Positions 11,046-63,503 of a stretch of DNA of 64,000 nucleotides are shown here, in pieces. The stretch spans positions 27,770 to 91,769 of IMG/VR virus record IMGVR_UViG_3300042566_000478. The stretch is one strand, 5' to 3'. The stretch is from a virus. A program made the translations under genes and the position numbers. A model generated the notes under the pieces. That model saw nothing but the letters and a program-made list of their open reading frames with translations. It searched no databases and had not been told where the DNA came from. The stretch's first letter is position 1. The number at the start of each line of letters is the position of its first letter.

Positions 11046-12670
11046 GTAAGTCCTGGAATCCAATCGTAAACAATCTCGTAGTCAATGTTTGTGTCAAGTA
11101 GCATGGTAACGGGTAGCAACTGCGGAATCAACTTTTCTATAGCAAGTTCTGTCTTGCCTTTGTTAGTTGAGTATGTAGAGTAAGAAGCATATTGTGCTCC
11201 ATCCCACTGGGAATCCGAAAAGTTATCTTGGTAAATAAATCCACCAAAGTCTGAATCACCATTAAAGAATGTTCCATAAGTTTTTGGTTCAACCATCCAC
11301 TGGTTTACCAATACAGAGTCATTTGCATCAAGTGCGTAAATGAGTACTGGGTATGCCATAGCACTAGCACTATCTGGCATCAGAATTACACGGCGTTCAC
11401 TTGGTGATATTTCAACAGGGATTAAATTGTCTGTCTGTTCATCTGTGTTCCACTCAGTCCAAGCGGCTGATGCTGACCAATATGAACCCCAGATATCGCC
11501 ATCACCATCAACCATTATTGAGTTCCAATAGTCAATGTCATTGTCTACTGGTACAGCAGTTTTTGAGACAAGGGCAAATTGTGCAGAAGCAGAACTTGCA
11601 TTTGTTACAAACAAACCACCTTCAACAGATGCGTAAGTGCAAGATGCACTTGACGAACTGAAATCCCATTTTTTAGTTCCAGATGTAACAACAAACTCAG
11701 AGTCAGCAATGAGGTTTACTTTTTCTGCATACACACGAAATGTATACCGTGGTGAAGAGTAGTTCTCAATAATTTCTACTTGGCAACCAGTAACAGCAAT
11801 TAAATATTGTTTGATTGCAGACAATGTTCCTTTACGTTGTCGGTAGTATCCAATGTCTTGAATTATTTGTCGGATGCGAGAAATACCAATGTCATCTGGT
11901 GTTACTTCCAGCCCAAACATGTCTGCAAGTAGCGTAAGTGATTGTGATTCAGTTACGTTTGGGTCATAGTGTTGCATTACAGAATCAAACAAAGTTCGTG
12001 TTCTGTTTAACTCAAAACCAAATGTGCTGAGGTATCTTTCCAACTGACCACGGTCTAGCCCTTGTGGGTCTAGGTTGCGCCCATACGTGTCATTTACACG
12101 GTGATGAGTAGGTATGCGTGACCAAATTTGCTCTTCGGAACCATAATTATATGGAACAAGTTCTTGTAGGTAAGCCACACGTTCGTACCAGTTGACTGCA
12201 CTGATTCCAGTACCACCCTGGTTCCAATGTAAGAACATTGAGTAGTACGCCCATTGACCTGTAGGAACACCATTATGTTCAACTGAGTAAACTGAGTCGT
12301 ATGAATACTGCGTTTTGATTATTGCACCGTCACGAACTGTTTCTGGTGGTCCAGTTGGCGAATACACAATAACAATGTCAGTAACTACCGAACTCTCACT
12401 TAAGTTTTCTTCTGCTGGTGTGATTGTAAAGTTTGTCCACTCAAGAAGTACTGAAGAGTAGGAGTTAGAAATTGCTGTAAATGAAGCAGTTGTTGTTAAG
12501 TTTTCTGTAACAAAAACAATTCCATCGGAACGTATTGCTGAGTCACTGTCTAGTCTGGTAAGACCAGTAGGTGTTGTGGTACTAATACCACGAACATAAG
12601 AACCAAACGGGTTTGCATCTGGACTTAACTCTAAGTCAGTCCTTCGTACTCTAAAGGATACTCTTGCCAT
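11042..12670 (-). CDS. Baseplate wedge/tail protein, P2 gpI-like
   Basis: A 542-residue structural protein. The N-terminal about 150 residues are beta-rich. The central region (about 170-325) resembles the P2 gpI tail-protein family: a helical stretch around LDRGQLERYLSTFGFELNRT, then GISRIRQIIQDIGYYRQRKG and TLSAIKQYLIAVTGC, a typical signature. The C-terminal about 210 residues look like a beta-sandwich, possibly a fibre-attachment domain. It follows the J-like baseplate gene with a two-base gap, as gpJ and gpI are paired in P2-like baseplates. It probably bridges wedge and fibres. Confidence 0.8.
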   Translation of the reverse strand: MARVSFRVRRTDLELSPDANPFGSYVRGISTTTPTGLTRLDSDSAIRSDGIVFVTENLTTTASFTAISNSYSSVLLEWTNFTITPAEENLSESSVVTDIVIVYSPTGPPETVRDGAIIKTQYSYDSVYSVEHNGVPTGQWAYYSMFLHWNQGGTGISAVNWYERVAYLQELVPYNYGSEEQIWSRIPTHHRVNDTYGRNLDPQGLDRGQLERYLSTFGFELNRTRTLFDSVMQHYDPNVTESQSLTLLADMFGLEVTPDDIGISRIRQIIQDIGYYRQRKGTLSAIKQYLIAVTGCQVEIIENYSSPRYTFRVYAEKVNLIADSEFVVTSGTKKWDFSSSSASCTYASVEGGLFVTNASSASAQFALVSKTAVPVDNDIDYWNSIMVDGDGDIWGSYWSASAAWTEWNTDEQTDNLIPVEISPSERRVILMPDSASAMAYPVLIYALDANDSVLVNQWMVEPKTYGTFFNGDSDFGGFIYQDNFSDSQWDGAQYASYSTYSTNKGKTELAIEKLIPQLLPVTMLLDTNIDYEIVYDWIPGLT

Positions 12671-12672
12671 AA

Positions 12673-14472
12673 TTAAACGGTGATTCCTCCGCTAGAAGTA
12701 ATAACAATGTTCTTTAACAAAAGAAGAGATGCTTCTCCAGAACGCACTCCAGATACAACAGGGTCCGAGCCAACTACGTCAATAACATCGTCAACTAAAC
12801 CAGTTGTAAATTCTTGTACAGTTGTGTACTGAACTCCATCTACGGCAAGAATTGTTTGGTACAACTCTCCAAGTGTTATCGTTTGGTTGAAATCAACATT
12901 TTCAAATGAGAACATGTCTTTAACCGCAAGAGCAACATCTTCTTCAATTGCATCACGAACATAGTTAGGCAACACACTTAAAGTAAATTTAATAGAAACT
13001 TCGTCAAGTTCAACTTCAGGCATTACGACCATGTTTACCCCCACCATGCTTCGTGGGTCAATGTAATCGTAAATTGTGTCTCGCACTTCTGTATCTAATG
13101 CAAGTGGCCCAGTAGTAGGGTCAACAGACACGGTTCCGTCATAATCGTTAATGTTTCCCAACGCATAGATTTTTACTTGAGCGTTTCTAACATAACCATC
13201 AGAAACAGATGCTGAAGCAACACTTGCTGATGCTAAATCATAGCGAAGTGTGGTTCCACTGCTACCTGTTTTTACTACATAAGTACCATTGAATGTGTCG
13301 TCAATATTGAACACTGCGATTGTTTCTCCCACAGAAAAAGTGTGTGAAGAATCGGTAGTTAGTTGTGCAACACTTGCTGACAATTGTTTGTTTGTAATGC
13401 TTACTTGTTTAGCAGCAACATTATTTAATACCGCTTTTGCTTTAACAACACCAGAGGTACGAAGTGTGAGGTCTTGGTAGTCCGTCAATGACACAGCACG
13501 GTCTTGCGACCTAAATGAAGATGTAATGTTTTTACGTAAGATTTCAATGCTTTCAGGATTTGCACCACCAAATGCTTTAACTGTGTTTGGGATAATAACA
13601 AGACCGTCATACCCTGCACCAATACTTGAATCTAGTGATTCAAATTCAGTAATGGTATTAGCGGATACGTTTCCTTCAGCGCCTCGTGAAGTCCTGTAAG
13701 TAACAGTAATTACAGAGTTAGTGGTTGGTACTTTTCCGTTTGCGTTGTTACCAAAGGTAAGAATCGTGTAGTCATCCGATGTAATGCGTGTTGAATATAC
13801 AAGGTCTGTTCCAGTAGCATCAATCAGTCGCTCAATTTGAGAATAAGAAACAGAAGAGCCACCAGGTCCTTCATTTACAGTAACTGTAATTGACCTACCT
13901 ACTACGTTTGGTTGGTTAAGAATAATCTGTTGATTTGAACCATTAATGCTTGTGTAGGACTCAGTATAAATTTCACCCTCAGTAAGTGGGACTCGGATGT
14001 TTCCGTCTGATTTTGAGTACGTAACATAGTTAGGAACATTTGTTCCACTTACGTTTATAGCAATTGGTGCTTGACTTAAAAAGATAACGTCAGAATTATC
14101 ATATGGAGATTTACCAACAAACCTAGTATTTCTAGGAATAAGAACTGGCGCTTCATCTGTGCAGATAGAATCAGAAGGATTAATGAAGATAATCGCAGTT
14201 GCGTTACTTACTCCTTGTGCTTTGTAGTCTAAGAGGCTTGCTAAAGCCAAAACGCTTGACCGTTGTGTAGCGGTTTCCAAAAATGCTTCCTGTGCAACCC
14301 TGTCAAGGTAGTAGTGGAGTGTGTCGCCAAGGTATGCCCATAGGTCAACAAACACCATGCCAAAGTCCGTTGCTTCACGAGATGTCCATTCGGGGATAGT
14401 TTCTGAAGCACGTGAAAGCAGGTCTTCACGAATAGACGCATAGTCCCTATTGGTATAGTCAAATTTCATCAT
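12673..14472 (-). CDS. Baseplate J-like protein (gpJ / T4 gp6 type)
   Basis: A 599-residue baseplate wedge protein. The N-terminus (FDYTNRDYASIREDLLSR, then EATDFGMVFVDLWAYLGDTL) is typical of large J-like proteins in myoviruses, which place each wedge around the hub. The middle is beta-rich; the C-terminal part has the J-family run of short helices (about 480-560; LGELYQTILAVDGVQYTTV). It overlaps the gp25-like gene by four bases (ATGA). Together with gp25, hub and gpI homologues it forms a complete simple baseplate. Confidence 0.93.
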   Translation of the reverse strand: MMKFDYTNRDYASIREDLLSRASETIPEWTSREATDFGMVFVDLWAYLGDTLHYYLDRVAQEAFLETATQRSSVLALASLLDYKAQGVSNATAIIFINPSDSICTDEAPVLIPRNTRFVGKSPYDNSDVIFLSQAPIAINVSGTNVPNYVTYSKSDGNIRVPLTEGEIYTESYTSINGSNQQIILNQPNVVGRSITVTVNEGPGGSSVSYSQIERLIDATGTDLVYSTRITSDDYTILTFGNNANGKVPTTNSVITVTYRTSRGAEGNVSANTITEFESLDSSIGAGYDGLVIIPNTVKAFGGANPESIEILRKNITSSFRSQDRAVSLTDYQDLTLRTSGVVKAKAVLNNVAAKQVSITNKQLSASVAQLTTDSSHTFSVGETIAVFNIDDTFNGTYVVKTGSSGTTLRYDLASASVASASVSDGYVRNAQVKIYALGNINDYDGTVSVDPTTGPLALDTEVRDTIYDYIDPRSMVGVNMVVMPEVELDEVSIKFTLSVLPNYVRDAIEEDVALAVKDMFSFENVDFNQTITLGELYQTILAVDGVQYTTVQEFTTGLVDDVIDVVGSDPVVSGVRSGEASLLLLKNIVITSSGGITV

Positions 14473-14882
14473 AATGGGGCATCCTCAGTTAACTGGAGTG
14501 GATTATTAATTGTATATGTAGTGGTCTTTACCATGTTTGTATATGGAAACTGGTAAGTAACCCTAATCCCAAGACTGTTTGGAAGACCAGTGGATATGTC
14601 TCCCTGTTCTATTTCCTGAACATCTATAGAAATAATGGTTATTGATGGTATTAAGGTGCGTAGTTCAGCAAGAGACTCCATCTTAAACTCTTCAAAAACA
14701 AGTGGGTCAAACGACTCAAAGAGAAGGCTGTAGGAGTTTGAGCCAAATAACTGACTCATCGGGCGTTGACCTTGTTGAGAAAGTAGATATTCTCCTATCT
14801 GCTGTTCAACATTAGTCTCAACATCCAATACGGCTTCTGTCTTTCCGTACTGATTAATTTGGAATGGGTATTTAAGAATCAT
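14469..14882 (-). CDS. Baseplate gp25/gpW-like protein
   Basis: A 137-residue protein of the gp25/GPW family that initiates the tail sheath at the baseplate. Diagnostic segments are the N-terminal FQINQYGKT, then LDVETNVEQQIGEYLLSQQG and QRPMSQLFGSNSY, where the family has its characteristic Glu/Arg and Pro residues, and the helix MESLAELRTLIPSI. The C-terminus forms a beta hairpin (GIRVTYQFPYTNM). It lies between the spike/OB protein and the J-like gene, the standard order. Confidence 0.92.
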   Translation of the reverse strand: MILKYPFQINQYGKTEAVLDVETNVEQQIGEYLLSQQGQRPMSQLFGSNSYSLLFESFDPLVFEEFKMESLAELRTLIPSITIISIDVQEIEQGDISTGLPNSLGIRVTYQFPYTNMVKTTTYTINNPLQLTEDAPL

Positions 14883-32269: not shown

Positions 32270-32902
32270 TTATACAGGCTTACGGGTTTTGCTTTGTTCG
32301 TACTCCTGAATGTACGTGTGATACGGAGGTCCCGTATGAGGGTCAAACTTAGCACTAACGGCGAGAGCCTTCAGCGCATGGTTTTTAGCCTGTTGCACAG
32401 TTTGTTTCTTGTTGTGCGTAAGTACATGCATAGCACCTAGGGCGTACTCGCCACCAGACCCAATCACGTACAGACCACTGGCTTCAGAAGCCCAAGCGTA
32501 ATCTCCATCAACTATATAGATAGTGCCGTTAATGGCTACAAGAATTAATGACCCTTGCTCTGCAATGTGTTGCTTGTTTTCGTTAAGGTCGGGGATTGAG
32601 TATCCTTGTGCATCAAAGCATTCACGGAGTGCTGGTATAAACTTCGCCGTAAAGAACTGGTCAAGTTTCTTCCCTTTAAGGTTTGGCGGTGGGGTCGGCG
32701 GTTGGAATACATGATGGAGAATGTTGATGGCCCGTACATCTCCAGCAGCACCAAGTAAATATTTTCCATTAGTTGATACCTTGCTACTTCCTTCACGAAG
32801 AGTTCCTATTTGCGTGGCAATGCCCCCATCAATAGACGAGATGCGAGAGTCCACGCAGACGACTGCGAACCCATCACCTTGGACAGCGACAATAGTAGTC
32901 AT
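32270..32902 (-). CDS. HslV/proteasome beta-like Ntn hydrolase
   Basis: A 210-residue protein. The start MTTIVAVQGDGFAVVCVDSR aligns with HslV: after loss of Met the first residue is Thr, the nucleophile of this family. The next catalytic residue, Asp17 in mature numbering, is in CVDSR, and a Lys (SSKVST) comes seven residues later than HslV Lys33. A GAAG loop (LLGAAGDV) matches the conserved GxxG. The family forms threonine proteases. It is encoded between the phosphoesterase and portal genes, so a head-maturation or host-directed protease is possible. No HslU-like unfoldase is seen in the window. Confidence 0.85.
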   Translation of the reverse strand: MTTIVAVQGDGFAVVCVDSRISSIDGGIATQIGTLREGSSKVSTNGKYLLGAAGDVRAINILHHVFQPPTPPPNLKGKKLDQFFTAKFIPALRECFDAQGYSIPDLNENKQHIAEQGSLILVAINGTIYIVDGDYAWASEASGLYVIGSGGEYALGAMHVLTHNKKQTVQQAKNHALKALAVSAKFDPHTGPPYHTYIQEYEQSKTRKPV

Positions 32903-40909: not shown

Positions 40910-40915
40910 ATTATA
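40910..40915 (-). promoter_or_regulatory. TATAAT box, leaderless start of gene 40343-40903
   Basis: TATAAT is followed by six bases and then ATG (40903). A -10 element at this distance places the transcription start on the start codon, and there is no Shine-Dalgarno sequence. It overlaps the last codons of the upstream gene. Confidence 0.65.
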
Positions 40916-41492
40916 GTTTGTTATTAACCTTTAGGCAGAATTGCCAGTAATACTTACCAACAACAGGCCATTCAATTTGGCTCTCTGCATCAAACCATGA
41001 TTTTCCTGCTGGGTTATTAGGTATCACATCAAATAAATTGACAACATTGTTAAACTCCAATGAATTTAACAATTTCTCAACTCTTGACTCATGACAATTC
41101 CAATGGTGGTGAGCGCCATCCCACCATTCCAATCCAGGAACATGTGTATCAGGGACATCTAAATGCTCCATAACTGACTCCACCAACCACCACGGCTCTA
41201 AACCCTCTTTCCAGCGTTTAATAGTTCTATGAACATCTGGACCAACGACAAGCATTGGAGCATTGGGTTTAGCAATACGTTGCATGTCTTTGAGGAATGT
41301 AGACACCTCTAACCAAGGAATGTGCTCCAGCACATGACCCATGTAGATAGCATCAAACGTATTATCTTCAAACGGATACGGTTTACCAGGGGCTACCTTG
41401 ACATCTGGTTTGGTGTCATCTGTTTCCCATGTATCTGTATTTACCCAACCTTGTGCGTAATGGGTTCCACAACCAACATTTAAAAGTTTCAT
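40911..41492 (-). CDS. Class I SAM-dependent methyltransferase
   Basis: A 193-residue protein. The N-terminus KLLNVGCGTHYAQGWVNTD is motif I (GxGxG variant), which binds S-adenosylmethionine; FDAIYMGHVLEHIP is motif III-like and places it with the Methyltransf_11/23 type enzymes. It starts at ATG 41492, overlapping the dioxygenase stop as ATGA. The partner genes (dioxygenase and glycosyltransferase) suggest modification of a sugar or lipid. Confidence 0.85.
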   Translation of the reverse strand: MKLLNVGCGTHYAQGWVNTDTWETDDTKPDVKVAPGKPYPFEDNTFDAIYMGHVLEHIPWLEVSTFLKDMQRIAKPNAPMLVVGPDVHRTIKRWKEGLEPWWLVESVMEHLDVPDTHVPGLEWWDGAHHHWNCHESRVEKLLNSLEFNNVVNLFDVIPNNPAGKSWFDAESQIEWPVVGKYYWQFCLKVNNKL

Positions 41493-42256
41493 GAAACAGG
41501 ACCACCTTCTAGTGGGAAATACCACCCACCATTATTATTTTTTGCTGTTGGCATATCTTGACGGTGATTGATTCCTGAATAGTGAGCAATCAAAGATTTA
41601 CGTGGCATACCAACAACATTAGGCTCAGAACCACGATGTAATAACCTACCATGCCAAAACAACACATCACCACGCTCTGGCAGATACGTGATTACTTCAG
41701 CGTTACGTTTCTCAATCTCTGCTTCAAACAATGGGGTAAGTAGTCGTTCACTATGTTTGGGCCATGTATGGTCTTGCTCATCTGGACTAAGTGCAGCAAG
41801 AATCTTTTCCCTAGTAACTGTAGGCCACCTGTGTGAACCACGAACAAATTGAAAAGGTCCAGAGTCTGGGTGAATGGTTTCAAGAGCAATCCAGATAGCA
41901 GCATAATAGTCACCAACATGGTCTGGATTTAAATAAGAATCTTGATGCCAATTACGGCGAGTAGTAACCCACCCCGTTAGATTTAAATGAAGACCAGCAG
42001 GTTCACCAATAAGGTCTTGCATAGTATTAGTAATTCCACTGTAAGTAAGAATATCCATCACTTCTGGATGTCTGCGATACGGTGTGCAATCAGGCCACCC
42101 ACCAGGTCGCTCGGAGTTATTCTCTAACCAACATTGTTCATAATTGACCATCAACTCTTCTGGAACAAAGTTTTTCTTAATAACAAATCCGTCTGCATTC
42201 CAATCCATTGGGCCAATGGGGGGAGCAGGTATCGTTAGGTCATCTAGGGTAATCAT
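41489..42256 (-). CDS. PhyH-family Fe(II)/2-oxoglutarate dioxygenase
   Basis: A 255-residue protein of the phytanoyl-CoA dioxygenase family. Iron ligands are H104-Q-D106 (NWHQDSYLN) and H207 (LLHRGS); R219 (MPRKS) binds 2-oxoglutarate. IWIALETIHPDSGPFQFVRG, then SHRWP, is the core double-stranded beta-helix of the family. It hydroxylates an unknown substrate. It overlaps both the methyltransferase and the glycosyltransferase by four bases, so all three are co-translated. Confidence 0.92.
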   Translation of the reverse strand: MITLDDLTIPAPPIGPMDWNADGFVIKKNFVPEELMVNYEQCWLENNSERPGGWPDCTPYRRHPEVMDILTYSGITNTMQDLIGEPAGLHLNLTGWVTTRRNWHQDSYLNPDHVGDYYAAIWIALETIHPDSGPFQFVRGSHRWPTVTREKILAALSPDEQDHTWPKHSERLLTPLFEAEIEKRNAEVITYLPERGDVLFWHGRLLHRGSEPNVVGMPRKSLIAHYSGINHRQDMPTAKNNNGGWYFPLEGGPVS

Positions 42257-43335
42257 AATGCTGAGATTTTCTCCATTACTTCATTCCAATCAAAGCCACG
42301 TTTTTCCATTGAAAACTGCTCTTTAACTACTTCGTAGTTTACCATTGCTTCATCTTTACGCATGTTTGGGTCAAGTAGTTCCTTTAGGTGGTACTTCCAC
42401 TCCTCTGGAGTTTTGGCAATACGCCCTACCCCAGCATCCGCAAGGTATTGATATTCAGGTGAATATGATGCAATAAAAGGAACACCAGCAGCGACATACT
42501 CAAGTCCCTTGATAAAAGACTTTGCATGATTGAACTCAACATTGTTTAGGGGAACTAAACCAACGTCTATAGGTGGGAACAACTTAGGGTAATCAAGAAT
42601 TGGAGCCATCGGCATAATTGTTGATTTCTGTCGGTAATGCCCAAGTTGTGAATATGCAAAAGGCGCATCTGGTGTGTGACCAGAGTGATGAAAAGTTAAG
42701 TTATGTTGTTTTAAAAACTTAGGAACGTGTGGATTAAGGCTTTCTAAGTCACTAGACCGCCAAGGTGTAGCACCAACCCAACCAACAACGGGAGAGCGTT
42801 TTGCTTTGTCTTTACGCATCTTCCAACGGTCAACATCTATTCCGTTGCGGATTAGAAACACATTTTTTCTTTTTTTAGAATAGAATTCATACAAAAATGG
42901 AGTAGATGTGATTACCGCATCTGCTTCATTAATCATGTGGAAATAGTGGTCACGGTTATTTTCTGGGTGTAGTTTTGGGTCAGTAGCCGCATACGCACGG
43001 TTAGTTGGCTCAAGACCTTCAAAAAAGTCGTCAATATCAACAACGATTTTTTGTCCTTTTTTCTTTGCTTCCTTTACCATGTCAGTGATTTCTTTACGCA
43101 TCACCAATTTAAATACGAGGATTTCCCACCCGTGAATGGCTTTGTCGTTAGCGACAATTAATCCGTAACCGTGGTCTTCGTGCCAGCGTGGAAACCCCAT
43201 ACCAACACGCCACTCAAACTTCTCCAACTCTTTCATAGGAAGAAAACAGCGATACCACGCACAACCGTTTGGTTGTAGTGGCTTTGTCCCGTGCGCCCAA
43301 TCGTATGTCAAAAACCCAATCGTTTTGTTACCCAT
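42253..43335 (-). CDS. GT-B-fold glycosyltransferase (GT4-like)
   Basis: A 360-residue protein. The C-terminal domain has the GT4-type layout: VVGWVGATPWRSSDLESLNP (donor side), a helical segment, then VGLVPLNNVEFNHAKSFIKG followed by LEYVAAGVPFIAS, the EX7E-like segment with conserved K/E residues. The N-terminal domain contains VVDIDDFFEGL and a nucleotide-fold GIDVDRW linker. It would transfer sugar from a nucleotide sugar. It is the first gene of the tailoring operon with PhyH and the methyltransferase. Confidence 0.85.
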   Translation of the reverse strand: MGNKTIGFLTYDWAHGTKPLQPNGCAWYRCFLPMKELEKFEWRVGMGFPRWHEDHGYGLIVANDKAIHGWEILVFKLVMRKEITDMVKEAKKKGQKIVVDIDDFFEGLEPTNRAYAATDPKLHPENNRDHYFHMINEADAVITSTPFLYEFYSKKRKNVFLIRNGIDVDRWKMRKDKAKRSPVVGWVGATPWRSSDLESLNPHVPKFLKQHNLTFHHSGHTPDAPFAYSQLGHYRQKSTIMPMAPILDYPKLFPPIDVGLVPLNNVEFNHAKSFIKGLEYVAAGVPFIASYSPEYQYLADAGVGRIAKTPEEWKYHLKELLDPNMRKDEAMVNYEVVKEQFSMEKRGFDWNEVMEKISAL

Positions 43336-47247: not shown

Positions 47248-48081
47248 ATGAAACAAATTAGCATTATCAACAATTCTTCTTTTCAAGAGTTTCTAGAAAA
47301 CAGTGAAAAATACGTTAATGCCCTCAAAGACCTTGGTGCAATAGTCCTCCGTGGTCATAGGTTTTCTAGAAAAGAGCAGTTAATTGCTACCCAGGTATTC
47401 GGTAACTATTTAGGTTATTACCCCAACCTTAACAGTATGAAATTTTGGCATTATGAGGAAAGTCATACCATTTCAATCAACAGAAGAAAATGGGCTACAA
47501 AACAAGACATACTAGTTCCGTGGCATCTTGAGCATTTTGGCTACCCCAACCCAGCAATTGGGGCTACTTGGAACATGGAAAAGTTTACATGTGACAGTGA
47601 TGCTGGGGCAACCATCTTTGTTGACACCTCAGATGTGTTTGCTTTACTAGACAATGAACAAAAGTCGTTTCTTAGGTTATGCAAGATTTCTGCGCTCCCA
47701 TCTTGTGATGACCCAGTGATGCCAAAAACTCCAACAGTTTTTAATGCCATACAAAAACACAAATTATCTAATAAAGAGATTATGCGTATGACCTTCTGTA
47801 GGGAGGGTGAAACAAGTACTAATTGTAAATTAATTGAGTTTAATGGAAGCGAGCCAAACGATTATGCAATTGGAATGTTTGGGTGGTACGAACAGTGGCT
47901 TGGAGAGCAGGTACTAAATAATACAAACATCCGCCAAATACATCATTGGCAAGATGGTGATTTACTAATTGTTGATTTAATGGTTATGTTTCACGCTGTT
48001 TTAGGAGGTTTTTCTGAAACAGAACGCTTCTTTAATGGGCTTTGGATGCACCAATACGATACTTCTAAGTATGGTAACTAG
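47248..48081 (+). CDS. TauD/TfdA-like Fe(II)/2-oxoglutarate dioxygenase
   Basis: A 277-residue protein, the only complete plus-strand gene in the window. Probable iron ligands are H93 and E95 (PWHLEHFGYP) and H249 (VMFHAVLGG); R260 (TERFFNG) would bind 2-oxoglutarate and DGDLLIVDLMVMFHAV is the closing core strand. HxE replaces the usual HxD, which some members tolerate. It is set among minus-strand fibre genes and runs tail to tail with the methyltransferase-like gene, which suggests recent insertion. Substrate unknown. Confidence 0.85.
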   Translation: MKQISIINNSSFQEFLENSEKYVNALKDLGAIVLRGHRFSRKEQLIATQVFGNYLGYYPNLNSMKFWHYEESHTISINRRKWATKQDILVPWHLEHFGYPNPAIGATWNMEKFTCDSDAGATIFVDTSDVFALLDNEQKSFLRLCKISALPSCDDPVMPKTPTVFNAIQKHKLSNKEIMRMTFCREGETSTNCKLIEFNGSEPNDYAIGMFGWYEQWLGEQVLNNTNIRQIHHWQDGDLLIVDLMVMFHAVLGGFSETERFFNGLWMHQYDTSKYGN

Positions 48082-60440: not shown

Positions 60441-61892
60441 TCATTTAAGTCGTGGTATCTTTATGTTTCTTTGAAGATGAAGGTCATCAGTACGTGTAAG
60501 TTGTTTTTTGGTCAAAGGTTTAGGCATTGGGTTTGCGTCATGATTAACTTGAAGTTCGTCAAACTGTTCCATTCCTGGAAGGGTGTGCTGAACACTTAAG
60601 TATTTTCCGTCAACATACTGGTGCCGTTTACCCATGTATTTCATTCCCATATCTGCGTATGGTTCCCCTGGGTGACCCAAACGCACATAGGGGTTACGCC
60701 CATGTTCAATTTTATTTGTCATAGGGTTATTGTAAGGTCGTTCTGAATCAGCCTGCCTCTGGTCATACAGGTCCATTGCTCTTTCAGTATCTTCCCTATT
60801 TACAAGCGCAGTATTTGCAACATGGTGTTTATAAAAGGCTTGCGAGTAGGTAGAGATTTCTCCTAGCCCCATTTTGTCTAATTGACCGTGCAGTGATGGG
60901 TTTTCGTGAACTAATTTCCCTAAATAAAGATGTTTAGCCGCATTTTGATATTCAGGAATATCATGAGGCAATCTAGCAAATCCTTTTTCTGATTTCATTA
61001 CTCTGTCTTTGTCTTTTTTATACAAAGTATGACCATAATCTCTTAAATGAGTTTCTGCAAGTTCAGTCATATTAGGTAATGAATCAATTGCAGACTTACC
61101 GCCAGAGGCTACGTGCAATCGTGCAGCCGCATATAAAGCCATTTCCCTTTTATCTTTCCACCTCTTGTTATCAACCCCATACCCAGATAGTTCCCCAGTT
61201 TTTCTCCATAAATCTAAGTGTCTATCTTCTCTTTGTGCTGGGTCTAATACTGCTTCGTGTCTTCTGTTATAACCCACACCCTTACGTATACCCTTGGGGT
61301 CACCTTCCCATTTCATGTTAGAGTACGGTTCAGAATATCTTTCCATGTAACCATCGGCAGTTCCTTCCATGTACGGAGATATATGCATACGGCCTTTGTT
61401 ATACATTGCACTTTCTAAACGAGTGTGTGAATGGTCCTCACCTTTACCATCTGGCGAATCTTCCCTGTGACCCCACTCATGGGCAAGGGTAGTATCCATG
61501 CTGTTATTGTTACCTGACATATGGATTTGGCGGTTCGTACTTGACCAGGTTCCACTGTACGTTTTTAATTTATTGTTTATTCTTACACCATTAAAGATAC
61601 CGTCACGTGGGTGTAGCCCAACAACGCTTGGGTCCATTTCTGCTATTGGCAAATCTGTATTTCCAGCATGATATATTAATAATGAATCTTCAGTTTTTAG
61701 TATTTTAGAAAAGTCATTAAGGCGTTTTTTCCCAGGATACGTTGGGTCTTCTGAAGTCATAGTTCCTGTTGCAGGATGAAACAACACGCCTTGAAGGTGT
61801 CCTTCTTGATAAGGATGGCGAAACTCTTGTGTCTCTCCACCATCTTCAGGGTTGAAGTAGGTGTTATTGAACTGTGAACCAAATCTAGGCAT
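60441..61892 (-). CDS. HExxH zinc metallopeptidase-like protein
   Basis: A 483-residue protein. Zinc-binding HEWGH is at 138-142 (LAHEWGHRED), with a downstream candidate ligand E176 (MEGTAD), a gluzincin-like layout. The N-terminus MPRFGSQFNNTYFNPEDG and QGVLFHPATG..DPTYPGKKR are shared with the next gene. The C-terminal about 250 residues are basic, with a VQHTLPGMEQF end region. The pair may be virion-injected, or modify host proteins; substrates are unknown. TATAAT lies five bases before ATG 61892, overlapping the previous stop. Confidence 0.75.
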   Translation of the reverse strand: MPRFGSQFNNTYFNPEDGGETQEFRHPYQEGHLQGVLFHPATGTMTSEDPTYPGKKRLNDFSKILKTEDSLLIYHAGNTDLPIAEMDPSVVGLHPRDGIFNGVRINNKLKTYSGTWSSTNRQIHMSGNNNSMDTTLAHEWGHREDSPDGKGEDHSHTRLESAMYNKGRMHISPYMEGTADGYMERYSEPYSNMKWEGDPKGIRKGVGYNRRHEAVLDPAQREDRHLDLWRKTGELSGYGVDNKRWKDKREMALYAAARLHVASGGKSAIDSLPNMTELAETHLRDYGHTLYKKDKDRVMKSEKGFARLPHDIPEYQNAAKHLYLGKLVHENPSLHGQLDKMGLGEISTYSQAFYKHHVANTALVNREDTERAMDLYDQRQADSERPYNNPMTNKIEHGRNPYVRLGHPGEPYADMGMKYMGKRHQYVDGKYLSVQHTLPGMEQFDELQVNHDANPMPKPLTKKQLTRTDDLHLQRNIKIPRLK

Positions 61893-61897
61893 GACTA

Positions 61898-61903
61898 ATT
61901 ATA
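61898..61903 (-). promoter_or_regulatory. TATAAT box, leaderless start of gene 60441-61892
   Basis: TATAAT, five bases, ATG (61892). The box overlaps the stop codon of the paralogous upstream gene. Confidence 0.6.
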
Positions 61904-63503
61904 GACCAGGTAGTTCTGGCTGTTCGTAAACTTCCCGTTGTTTACCGTCATAATACTGTTTTCCACGCATAGCGGATTTATTAGGAACCCTTGACATAAA
62001 TTCTTCATGTGCTGTTTGGGCAGTTTTACCAAAACCAAGTTCGTGTAGTACTGGGCGAACGTGTGGCATATTTTCGTACATATGCCCAAGCATTAACTTT
62101 GTTGTTGGGATTTCACCACTACGTGAATACCTAGTACTAAGAAGAGTTTCTCCCAAACCTTTACGGGTAGGCATTTCATCTCTACGCTCAGGGTGCGCTG
62201 CTAGGTGAAAACGAGTAGCAGAATAAAGGGCTCGTTCTTCAGCGTTCCATGCGTGGTAACTAGAGGTGTAGCCAGTTTCACTAATATCTTTTGCACGTAA
62301 CTGGGTGTTAGTTAAGTGTTTTTCAAATTGACCAGAATAATGATGCGCTCTGTCGGCTAGTGCGTCTGCATACCCTTCACTAACTGGGTCAAGGTCATAT
62401 ATCTGCCTACCGCTACGCTTAGTTAAATCACGTTGAGCCTTATCATGTGGTTCTAGCGTATGACCTAACTCGTGAGCAAGTGTTCGTTTGTTTGCTACAT
62501 ACTCACCTTGTACATTTTTTCTAGTCTGTGTAACTTTAGGTTCTTTTGTTGTGTCTGGTTCAAACCGTGTGTGCCATGTTTGGTAAGTGTATTCACCACC
62601 AACAAGTGGGTGTGGACCACTTTCAAGAGAAAGTTCTTCACCAACTGCGTGTTTTTTACCGCCCTCTCCTTTAGTTGGGTACACGTTTGGGTGATAGTTA
62701 TTTTCTTTTAACCAATCCATTGTCATATTTTGAGATGGGTCTTCCCCAATAACCTTACCAACATGTTCAGGAACGTCACCTGTTATAACATGGCCTTTAT
62801 CATTTTGCCAATGAACACCGTCTTCTTCAAGTATCGTGTGGATGTTGTAAGGGTGTTGTATCTTCTTCTCGTATTGGTTCCAAAAGCCTTTGTTTACAAT
62901 AGGCTTGTCAGATGGTTCATACGTTGTTTTTTCTGTTGTAACAGTTGATGAGTCTCTACCCACACCAACATATATTTCACCAAAACTTGCCCAACCTTTT
63001 CCCCAATCCGTAGGATAGGTAGGAGCATTTATACCTGTTTCATATTCACGGGTTGGTATATCTAAAGCATTTGCGGCTTTTCCAAGTGCTTCATGTTTTT
63101 TAAAAGAAATAACAGGGTCACCGTATTCAGGCAAAATATTACGGCGGTCTTGACCAGGTTTTCGGTTACGGTTGTATTCCACTCTTTCAGCATTCTTTGC
63201 TTCCCTTAATGCTTTTCTTTTTTTAAAATGCTCTAAATCACCTAAATGTAATGCTTTGTTAATAGCGCCCACCCGTTGTTCAGCAGGAACAGTTGGGTCG
63301 TTTTTTAACCCTGTGTATGAGTATGGGCTAAACAACATACCCTGTGGGTTATCAGAAGTACCAAAACCTTCAGCAATCTGTGGTTTTCGTTGTTCCATTG
63401 TAGGCAGGTCACCTTTTGTAGTAGGCAACTCTGTGGAAGACATGACCTTGTTTGATTCAGGGTCCTCCCAATATGTGTTGCTAAACTGCGGTCCTAAAGG
63501 CAT
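61899..63503 (-). CDS. HExxH zinc metallopeptidase-like protein (paralogue)
   Basis: A 534-residue protein. HELGH is at 344-348 (LAHELGHTLEPHDK) with E376 (VSEGYADAL) as the third ligand. The N-terminus MPLGPQFSNTYWEDPES and QGMLFSPYSYTG..NDPTVP match the 483-residue neighbour. An insertion of about 200 residues, with a Lys-rich stretch (about 94-120), separates the N-terminal and catalytic parts. The end is EVYEQPELPGL. Having two such genes in tandem, each with its own promoter, suggests paired functions. Confidence 0.75.
   Translation of the reverse strand: MPLGPQFSNTYWEDPESNKVMSSTELPTTKGDLPTMEQRKPQIAEGFGTSDNPQGMLFSPYSYTGLKNDPTVPAEQRVGAINKALHLGDLEHFKKRKALREAKNAERVEYNRNRKPGQDRRNILPEYGDPVISFKKHEALGKAANALDIPTREYETGINAPTYPTDWGKGWASFGEIYVGVGRDSSTVTTEKTTYEPSDKPIVNKGFWNQYEKKIQHPYNIHTILEEDGVHWQNDKGHVITGDVPEHVGKVIGEDPSQNMTMDWLKENNYHPNVYPTKGEGGKKHAVGEELSLESGPHPLVGGEYTYQTWHTRFEPDTTKEPKVTQTRKNVQGEYVANKRTLAHELGHTLEPHDKAQRDLTKRSGRQIYDLDPVSEGYADALADRAHHYSGQFEKHLTNTQLRAKDISETGYTSSYHAWNAEERALYSATRFHLAAHPERRDEMPTRKGLGETLLSTRYSRSGEIPTTKLMLGHMYENMPHVRPVLHELGFGKTAQTAHEEFMSRVPNKSAMRGKQYYDGKQREVYEQPELPGL

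What the first reader, a model, noticed from the sequence alone, without database searches (positions are those of the whole stretch)
60441..63503. Tandem pair of paralogous HExxH proteins
Two adjacent proteins share a short N-terminal signature (GxQFxNTY), a QGxLFxP region, an HExxH with a downstream EGxAD, and a DGK-to-LPG C-terminal region, yet differ greatly elsewhere. Each has its own TATAAT start. I do not recognise their family. Their size, charge and place beside the tail fibre genes would suit proteins injected with DNA or used to process fibres or host proteins.
Basis: partly seen in the sequence, partly recalled or inferred. Interest (0 to 1): 0.68.

Follow-up and report, generated by a model that had tools for sequence, protein, structure and literature searches.

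The report
Tagged phage metallopeptidase pair, probable effectors
Two neighbouring phage genes encode related zinc-protease-like proteins that carry the same short N-terminal tag as a nearby, variable set of small enzyme genes, suggesting they belong to a kit of proteins the phage uses inside its actinobacterial host.

Summary
Window 60441-61892(-) (483 aa) and 61899-63503(-) (534 aa) are homologous proteins. HExxH, EGxAD, GxQFxNTY and QGxLFxP are conserved in every complete relative found, down to 25% identity, under purifying selection. Sub-threshold profile matches at the HExxH core point to zinc metallopeptidases (DUF6782 1.4e-4, Tox-MPTase2, reprolysins; PDB snake-venom metalloproteinases). 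Structure models were too poor to prove the fold. The pair is not a recent duplication: the two types form separate, fully supported branches, and most related phages carry only one.

The larger finding lies just outside the window. The N-terminal signature is a variant of a portable tag (HExLSxxQF / GPQF) found on GNAT acetyltransferases, ParB-like proteins and ADP-ribosyltransferase-like proteins in adjacent variable arrays. The pair and many array genes also share an unusual start: TATAAT/TATACT 5-7 nt before ATG (leaderless type). In high-GC relatives, tagged genes sit among portal, capsid and connector genes. Mycobacterium phage Tonenili has ParB-like and GNAT-like regions fused in one protein near the portal.

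Best reading: zincin members of a tagged, un-fused counterpart of "polyvalent" phage effectors, probably acting in the host and possibly virion-delivered. Packaging is inferred, not shown.

The parts
61899..63503 (-). First HExxH protein (P0002, 534 aa)
   Evidence: ORF; relatives; dN/dS 0.32-0.34
60441..61892 (-). Second HExxH protein (P0001, 483 aa)
   Evidence: ORF; relatives; dN/dS 0.31-0.40
63471..63494 (-). N-terminal tag GPQFSNTY of P0002
   Evidence: GPQF also on unrelated array proteins
61857..61880 (-). N-terminal tag GSQFNNTY of P0001
63324..63344 (-). QGMLFSP block of P0002
61773..61793 (-). QGVLFHP block of P0001
62460..62474 (-). HELGH predicted zinc-binding/catalytic motif of P0002
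   Evidence: invariant in family
62364..62378 (-). EGYAD, predicted third zinc ligand (Glu) of P0002
   Evidence: invariant; 28 residues after second His
61467..61481 (-). HEWGH predicted zinc-binding/catalytic motif of P0001
   Evidence: invariant in family
61353..61367 (-). EGTAD, predicted third zinc ligand (Glu) of P0001
   Evidence: invariant; 34 residues after second His
62499..62921 (-). Variable insert (about 140 aa) between predicted core strands of P0002; absent in L009, longer in L016/L050
   Evidence: alignments; model strands 181-194 and 323-337 flank it (low confidence)
61902..61925 (-). C-terminal tail EQPELPGL of P0002; a similar tail (QxxLPG[LM]) ends L048:2245-3207 and L013:6049-6711
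60570..60590 (-). QHTLPGM motif of P0001
63510..63515 (-). TATAAT box 6 nt before the ATG of P0002 (leaderless-type start)
61898..61903 (-). TATAAT box 5 nt before the ATG of P0001, overlapping the stop codon of P0002
59403..59717 (-). Conserved neighbour with a related N-terminus (ENLNWDQH) and a TANNNT box at -12; possible further tagged protein
   Evidence: phrog_2089

Best explanation
Both proteins are zincin-like (gluzincin-type: HExxH plus a downstream Glu in EGxAD) metallopeptidases. They are the largest members of a set of separately encoded phage effectors that share a short N-terminal tag. Shown here: homology, invariant active-site residues, purifying selection, a tag shared with GNAT, ParB-like and ADP-ribosyltransferase-like proteins, shared leaderless-type starts, and virion-gene neighbourhoods of tagged genes in relatives. 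Inferred: the tag is a delivery or targeting signal that sends diverse enzymes to one place, most likely the virion head; after injection the peptidases cleave host (or co-delivered phage) proteins to favour the phage. The set would be an un-fused equivalent of the polyvalent proteins of other phages. My probabilities: zincin metallopeptidase 0.85; functional membership of the tagged set 0.8; tag as a virion packaging/delivery signal 0.45.
For: HExxH and EGxAD are invariant in all complete relatives at 25-93% identity. Metallopeptidase profiles hit the HExxH core: DUF6782 1.4e-4, Tox-MPTase2 0.03, Reprolysin_3/4 0.3; in the PDB, snake-venom metalloproteinases, protease C and ADAM8, all weak. 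Tag: 21 of 31 array proteins versus 4 of 54 other window genes, Fisher p=7e-9 (post hoc pattern). GPQF occurs on a GNAT (L045:2058-2408 MPIFGPQF), ParB-like proteins (L006:5481-6248 MPRPVGPQF; L023:2510-2830 DHLGPQF) and the zincins. A third zincin-like protein, L048:2245-3207, lies inside an array with WDQF near its N-terminus and the tail QQDKLPGM. TATA[ACT]T 5-7 nt before a start codon: 6 ORFs in L006 versus 0.1 expected. Tagged genes lie beside portal (L032), capsid (L023), connector genes (L021) and terminase (L019) (gene identities judged by eye from similarity to window genes). The single zincin gene of L016/L017 lies between terminase and portal genes. Tonenili gp097, near the portal gene, matches ParB families and the tagged GNAT. 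Literature: MPTases are the commonest domain of polyvalent proteins, and solo GNATs among late mycobacteriophage genes are proposed to be capsid-deployed (PMC5512222).
Against: No profile match reaches a curated cut-off. AlphaFold models are poor (mean pLDDT 50 and 56) and Foldseek found nothing. No proteomics exist. In the low-GC phages the pair and many array genes have their own leaderless-type promoters rather than lying in the late operon, which suits expression in the cell as well as packaging. The tag is short and degenerate, and about a third of array proteins lack it.
Confidence: 0.5

Rival explanations
1. The pair and the array are host-takeover enzymes made in the infected cell from leaderless host-type promoters and never packaged; the tag is a binding motif for a shared partner in the cell.
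For: TATAAT/TATACT 5-7 nt before ATG at the pair and at many array genes, whereas most window genes have Shine-Dalgarno-like leaders; arrays are variable between relatives.
Against: In high-GC relatives tagged genes sit within the virion gene cluster, and the L016 and L050 zincin genes lack this promoter, the L016 one lying in the head cluster.
Confidence: 0.33
2. They are virion-assembly proteases that process fibres or head proteins.
For: Conserved position between the arrays and the tail-fibre genes in the window, L009, L010, L013 and L048; HExxH proteins.
Against: The neighbourhood differs in L016/L017; many relatives have only one of the two types; variable inserts suit effectors better than maturation enzymes; the phage has a separate HslV-like peptidase beside its portal gene.
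Confidence: 0.1
3. The N-terminal QF/QL tag and the C-terminal Q..L motif are sliding-clamp-binding motifs that send the enzymes to the replisome.
For: Several tagged ParB-like proteins read QLSMF, QLQMF, QLAMF or QLRMF; family C-termini read QLKLW (L045, L046) or QLSLI (L016, L050). The clamp-motif comparison is from general knowledge.
Against: Most tags (GPQFSNTY, LSNLQFNYR, LSGTQFFHG) do not fit the clamp consensus, and the window pair's QPELPGL and QHTLPGM fit poorly.
Confidence: 0.1
4. They are inactive structural relatives of zincins.
For: No activity data; the fold is not confirmed.
Against: All predicted zinc-ligand and general-base positions are invariant across highly diverged members.
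Confidence: 0.06

Closest known systems
Zincin-like MPTase domains of polyvalent proteins (Iyer et al. 2017, PMC5512222)
   Same: HExxH plus a Glu in a following helix; variable insert regions; found in phages together with ART, GNAT and ParB domains; predicted delivery with DNA
   Different: Here one catalytic domain per gene, each with a short shared N-terminal tag, instead of 2-15 domains in one polypeptide; no match to a polyvalent-protein MPTase model was reported by the Pfam scans
DUF6782 putative metallopeptidase family (PF20573)
   Same: Aligns with L046 residues 99-199 around the HExxH (E=1.4e-4)
   Different: 21.6 bits, below the 27-bit cut-off; no match for the window proteins themselves
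Tox-MPTase2 (PF15638), polymorphic-toxin metallopeptidases
   Same: Aligns with the HExxH core of L013 (E=0.03)
   Different: Far below cut-off; no secretion or immunity gene context seen
Mycobacterium phage Tonenili gp097 (phrog_3147)
   Same: ParB-like region and a GNAT-like region resembling the tagged GNAT, near the portal gene; ART-like segments read by eye
   Different: A single 751-aa fused protein with no HExxH; its repeated HEGARI motif is not the same tag; the GNAT match is weak (E=0.03)

Membership tests
Zincin metallopeptidases | HExxH motif, conserved in the family | tested here: met
   Invariant in all aligned members
Zincin metallopeptidases | Third zinc ligand downstream (Glu in gluzincins) | tested here: met
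   EGxAD invariant, 28-45 residues after the second His
Zincin metallopeptidases | Zincin fold: strands, HExxH helix, ligand helix | tested here: inconclusive
   Order of elements fits, but mean pLDDT is 50-56 and Foldseek found no match
Zincin metallopeptidases | Zinc-dependent proteolysis | not testable with these tools
   Needs biochemistry
Polyvalent proteins | Several unrelated catalytic domains in one polypeptide | tested here: not met
   One predicted catalytic domain per gene; the others are separate neighbouring genes
Polyvalent proteins | Phage type encoded near packaging/portal genes | tested here: inconclusive
   Met for L016/L017 and for tagged proteins of high-GC relatives; not for the pair in this window
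Polyvalent proteins | Packaged and transferred with DNA | not testable with these tools
   No proteomics available
DUF6782 (PF20573) | Score above the curated cut-off | tested here: not met
   Best member 21.6 bits against 27; no match for P0001 or P0002
Tox-MPTase2 (PF15638) | Score above the curated cut-off | tested here: not met
   14.5 bits against 25

The most novel reading that the evidence does not exclude
A short, portable N-terminal tag (HExLSxxQF / GPQF) works as a virion-packaging and delivery signal, letting a group of actinobacterial phages load an exchangeable set of unlinked effector enzymes (peptidases, acetyltransferases, ADP-ribosyltransferases, ParB-like proteins) into the particle.
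Probability: 0.35. Interest if true: 0.82.

Novelty: new variant of a known kind. Interest (0 to 1): 0.6.

Why it matters
If the tag is a delivery signal, any gene carrying it could be recognised as an injected effector from sequence alone, giving a list of host-manipulating enzymes in phages of abundant, largely uncultured actinobacteria, and a possible way to load chosen proteins into phage particles. It would also offer an un-fused counterpart of polyvalent proteins, making the packaging step experimentally separable from each enzyme.

Tried and rejected
Direct family assignment failed: no hit for the pair in Pfam or PHROGs and nothing meaningful in NCBIfam, and no credible relative among 50,697 phage records or in the genome collection. 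AlphaFold models were too poor to use as proof; the Foldseek results are noise. PDB hits to ribosomal protein, PH-domain-like protein and antibody chains were dismissed. A recent tandem duplication was rejected: the tree separates the two types with full support. A tag shared only through DNA-level promoter sequence was considered and disfavoured, because the tag also occurs in high-GC phages without the TATAAT box and on array genes without their own box. Tonenili's repeated (R/K)TAG motifs may be protease sites, but this was not followed up. A literature search for a description of the tag found none (open-access library only).

Full report
Check of the observation. Both ORFs are present on the minus strand at the stated coordinates. 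Signatures are as described: MPLGPQFSNTYW and MPRFGSQFNNTYF at the N-terminus, QGMLFSP/QGVLFHP, HELGH/HEWGH, EGYAD/EGTAD and LPGL/LPGM. EGxAD, QGxLFxP and QFxNTY occur in no other ORF of the window. The two proteins match each other weakly by BLASTP (E=2e-5) but align well once relatives are included; a profile of the pair and its close copies aligns with the family core with hhalign probability 100 (the two profiles share members, so this is consistency, not independent proof). Each ATG is preceded by TATAAT at 5 or 6 nt.

Relatives. IMG/VR holds close copies (L002-L009), an intermediate tandem pair (L010), and diverged single genes: L011-L013, L045 and L046 (P0001 type), L048, L049, L016/L017 and L050/L051 (P0002 type). 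HExxH, EGxAD, the QF tag and the W...E.ALY.A.R.H segment persist throughout the complete members. dN/dS of 0.23-0.40 shows purifying selection. The tree splits the two types with 100/100 support, so the tandem arrangement is older than the divergence of these phages or was assembled from two lineages.

Nature of the domain. No library names the pair. Relatives give weak matches, placed at the HExxH core, to DUF6782 (putative metallopeptidase, 1.4e-4), Tox-MPTase2 and reprolysin-like families, and profile searches of the PDB give weak matches to snake-venom metalloproteinases, protease C and ADAM8 among unrelated hits. A sequence such as AGSYDSSVNRIYLR...FSHELGHAFDS in L046 reads as a normal zincin core (judged by eye). 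AlphaFold2 gave the right order of elements but low confidence, so the fold remains inferred. P0002 has a variable insert just before the HExxH, missing in L009 and larger in L016/L050, which could recognise substrates (inference).

The wider system. Contig L006, nearly identical to this genome, continues past the window end and shows a divergent array of small genes: ParB-like, Arr-like ADP-ribosyltransferase-like and GNAT proteins. The GNAT assignments pass Pfam cut-offs; the ParB-like and ART-like ones are sub-threshold. L010, L011, L013, L045, L046 and L048 have other versions. Many begin with a tag such as MAAHESLSGTQF, MPAHEHINQEQL or MALNPNQF. By a pattern defined after seeing the data, 21 of 31 array proteins but 4 of 54 other window genes carry it. 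The zincin N-terminus is a variant: GPQF also starts a GNAT (L045:2058-2408) and ParB-like proteins (L006:5481-6248; L023:2510-2830 reads DHLGPQF, joining the two forms). L048 also has a third HExxH protein inside its array, with WDQF near its N-terminus and ending in QQDKLPGM, close to P0002's EQPELPGL.

Starts. The pair and many array genes have TATAAT or TATACT 5-7 nt before the start codon, the arrangement expected for leaderless mRNAs (general knowledge of actinobacteria); L006 has 6 such ORFs against 0.1 expected, with more in other relatives. Most structural genes of the window have Shine-Dalgarno-like leaders instead.

Delivery. A pattern scan for the tag found 18 loci, including soil-type phages of 63-67% GC. 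There, tagged genes sit beside portal (L032), capsid (L023), connector (L021), terminase (L019) or tail-fibre-like genes (L026, L035) (identities by similarity to the window's genes). L016/L017 place the zincin itself between terminase and portal genes. Mycobacterium phage Tonenili encodes a 751-aa protein near its portal gene with ParB-like and GNAT-like regions. Iyer et al. argue that such domains, including solo GNATs among late genes of mycobacteriophages, are packaged (PMC5512222). I therefore favour virion delivery, but expression in the infected cell without packaging is nearly as well supported.

Host. Two WhiB genes elsewhere in the same record and a terminase 46-48% identical to Streptomyces phages point to an actinobacterial host; the GC content of 43% suggests a low-GC lineage (inference).

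Verdict. The pair is a real, conserved, previously unnamed family of probable zinc metallopeptidases. The most interesting part is its membership of a tagged, promoter-linked set of diverse enzymes. This is a new variant of the polyvalent-protein theme; whether the tag is a packaging signal is open and testable.

Noticed in passing
window 32270-32902 (-): HslV/proteasome-like peptidase (phrog_1040 4e-24; Pfam Proteasome 1.6e-5) near the portal gene, conserved in L016/L017; possibly the head maturation protease.
   Followed up: partly
L048:2245-3207 (-): A third, very divergent HExxH...EGxA protein inside an effector array, with WDQF near the N-terminus and the tail QQDKLPGM; weak Aminopep match (0.011).
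   Followed up: partly
L006:4354, L010:4687, L011:4655, L013:4402, L025, L034: Repeated upstream element around AACGGCAAATTTTT a short distance before the TATAAT/TATACT box of array genes; it may be a -35-like or recombination element.
   Followed up: no
window 45176 and 40903 (-): Two other window genes with TATAAT 6 nt before the start codon: a Thr-rich secreted-looking protein and a 186-aa unknown.
   Followed up: no
L006:6277-7158 (-): Fatty acid desaturase gene (6e-31) beside the array, with its own TATAAT start; absent from that position in L010 and L013.
   Followed up: no
window 40911-43335 (-) and 47248-48081 (+): Methyltransferase, PhyH-type dioxygenase, glycosyltransferase-like and TauD-like genes between terminase and tail genes; perhaps glycan or surface modification.
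   Followed up: no
L037:8524-10779 and 11545-14832: Tonenili gp097 repeats HEGARI.AAE before domains, and gp097 and gp258 share repeated (R/K)TAG motifs; possible prohead-protease sites releasing single effectors.
   Followed up: partly
L014:11725-12093 and 13194-13607: Two WhiB transcription factor genes, supporting an actinobacterial host.
   Followed up: yes
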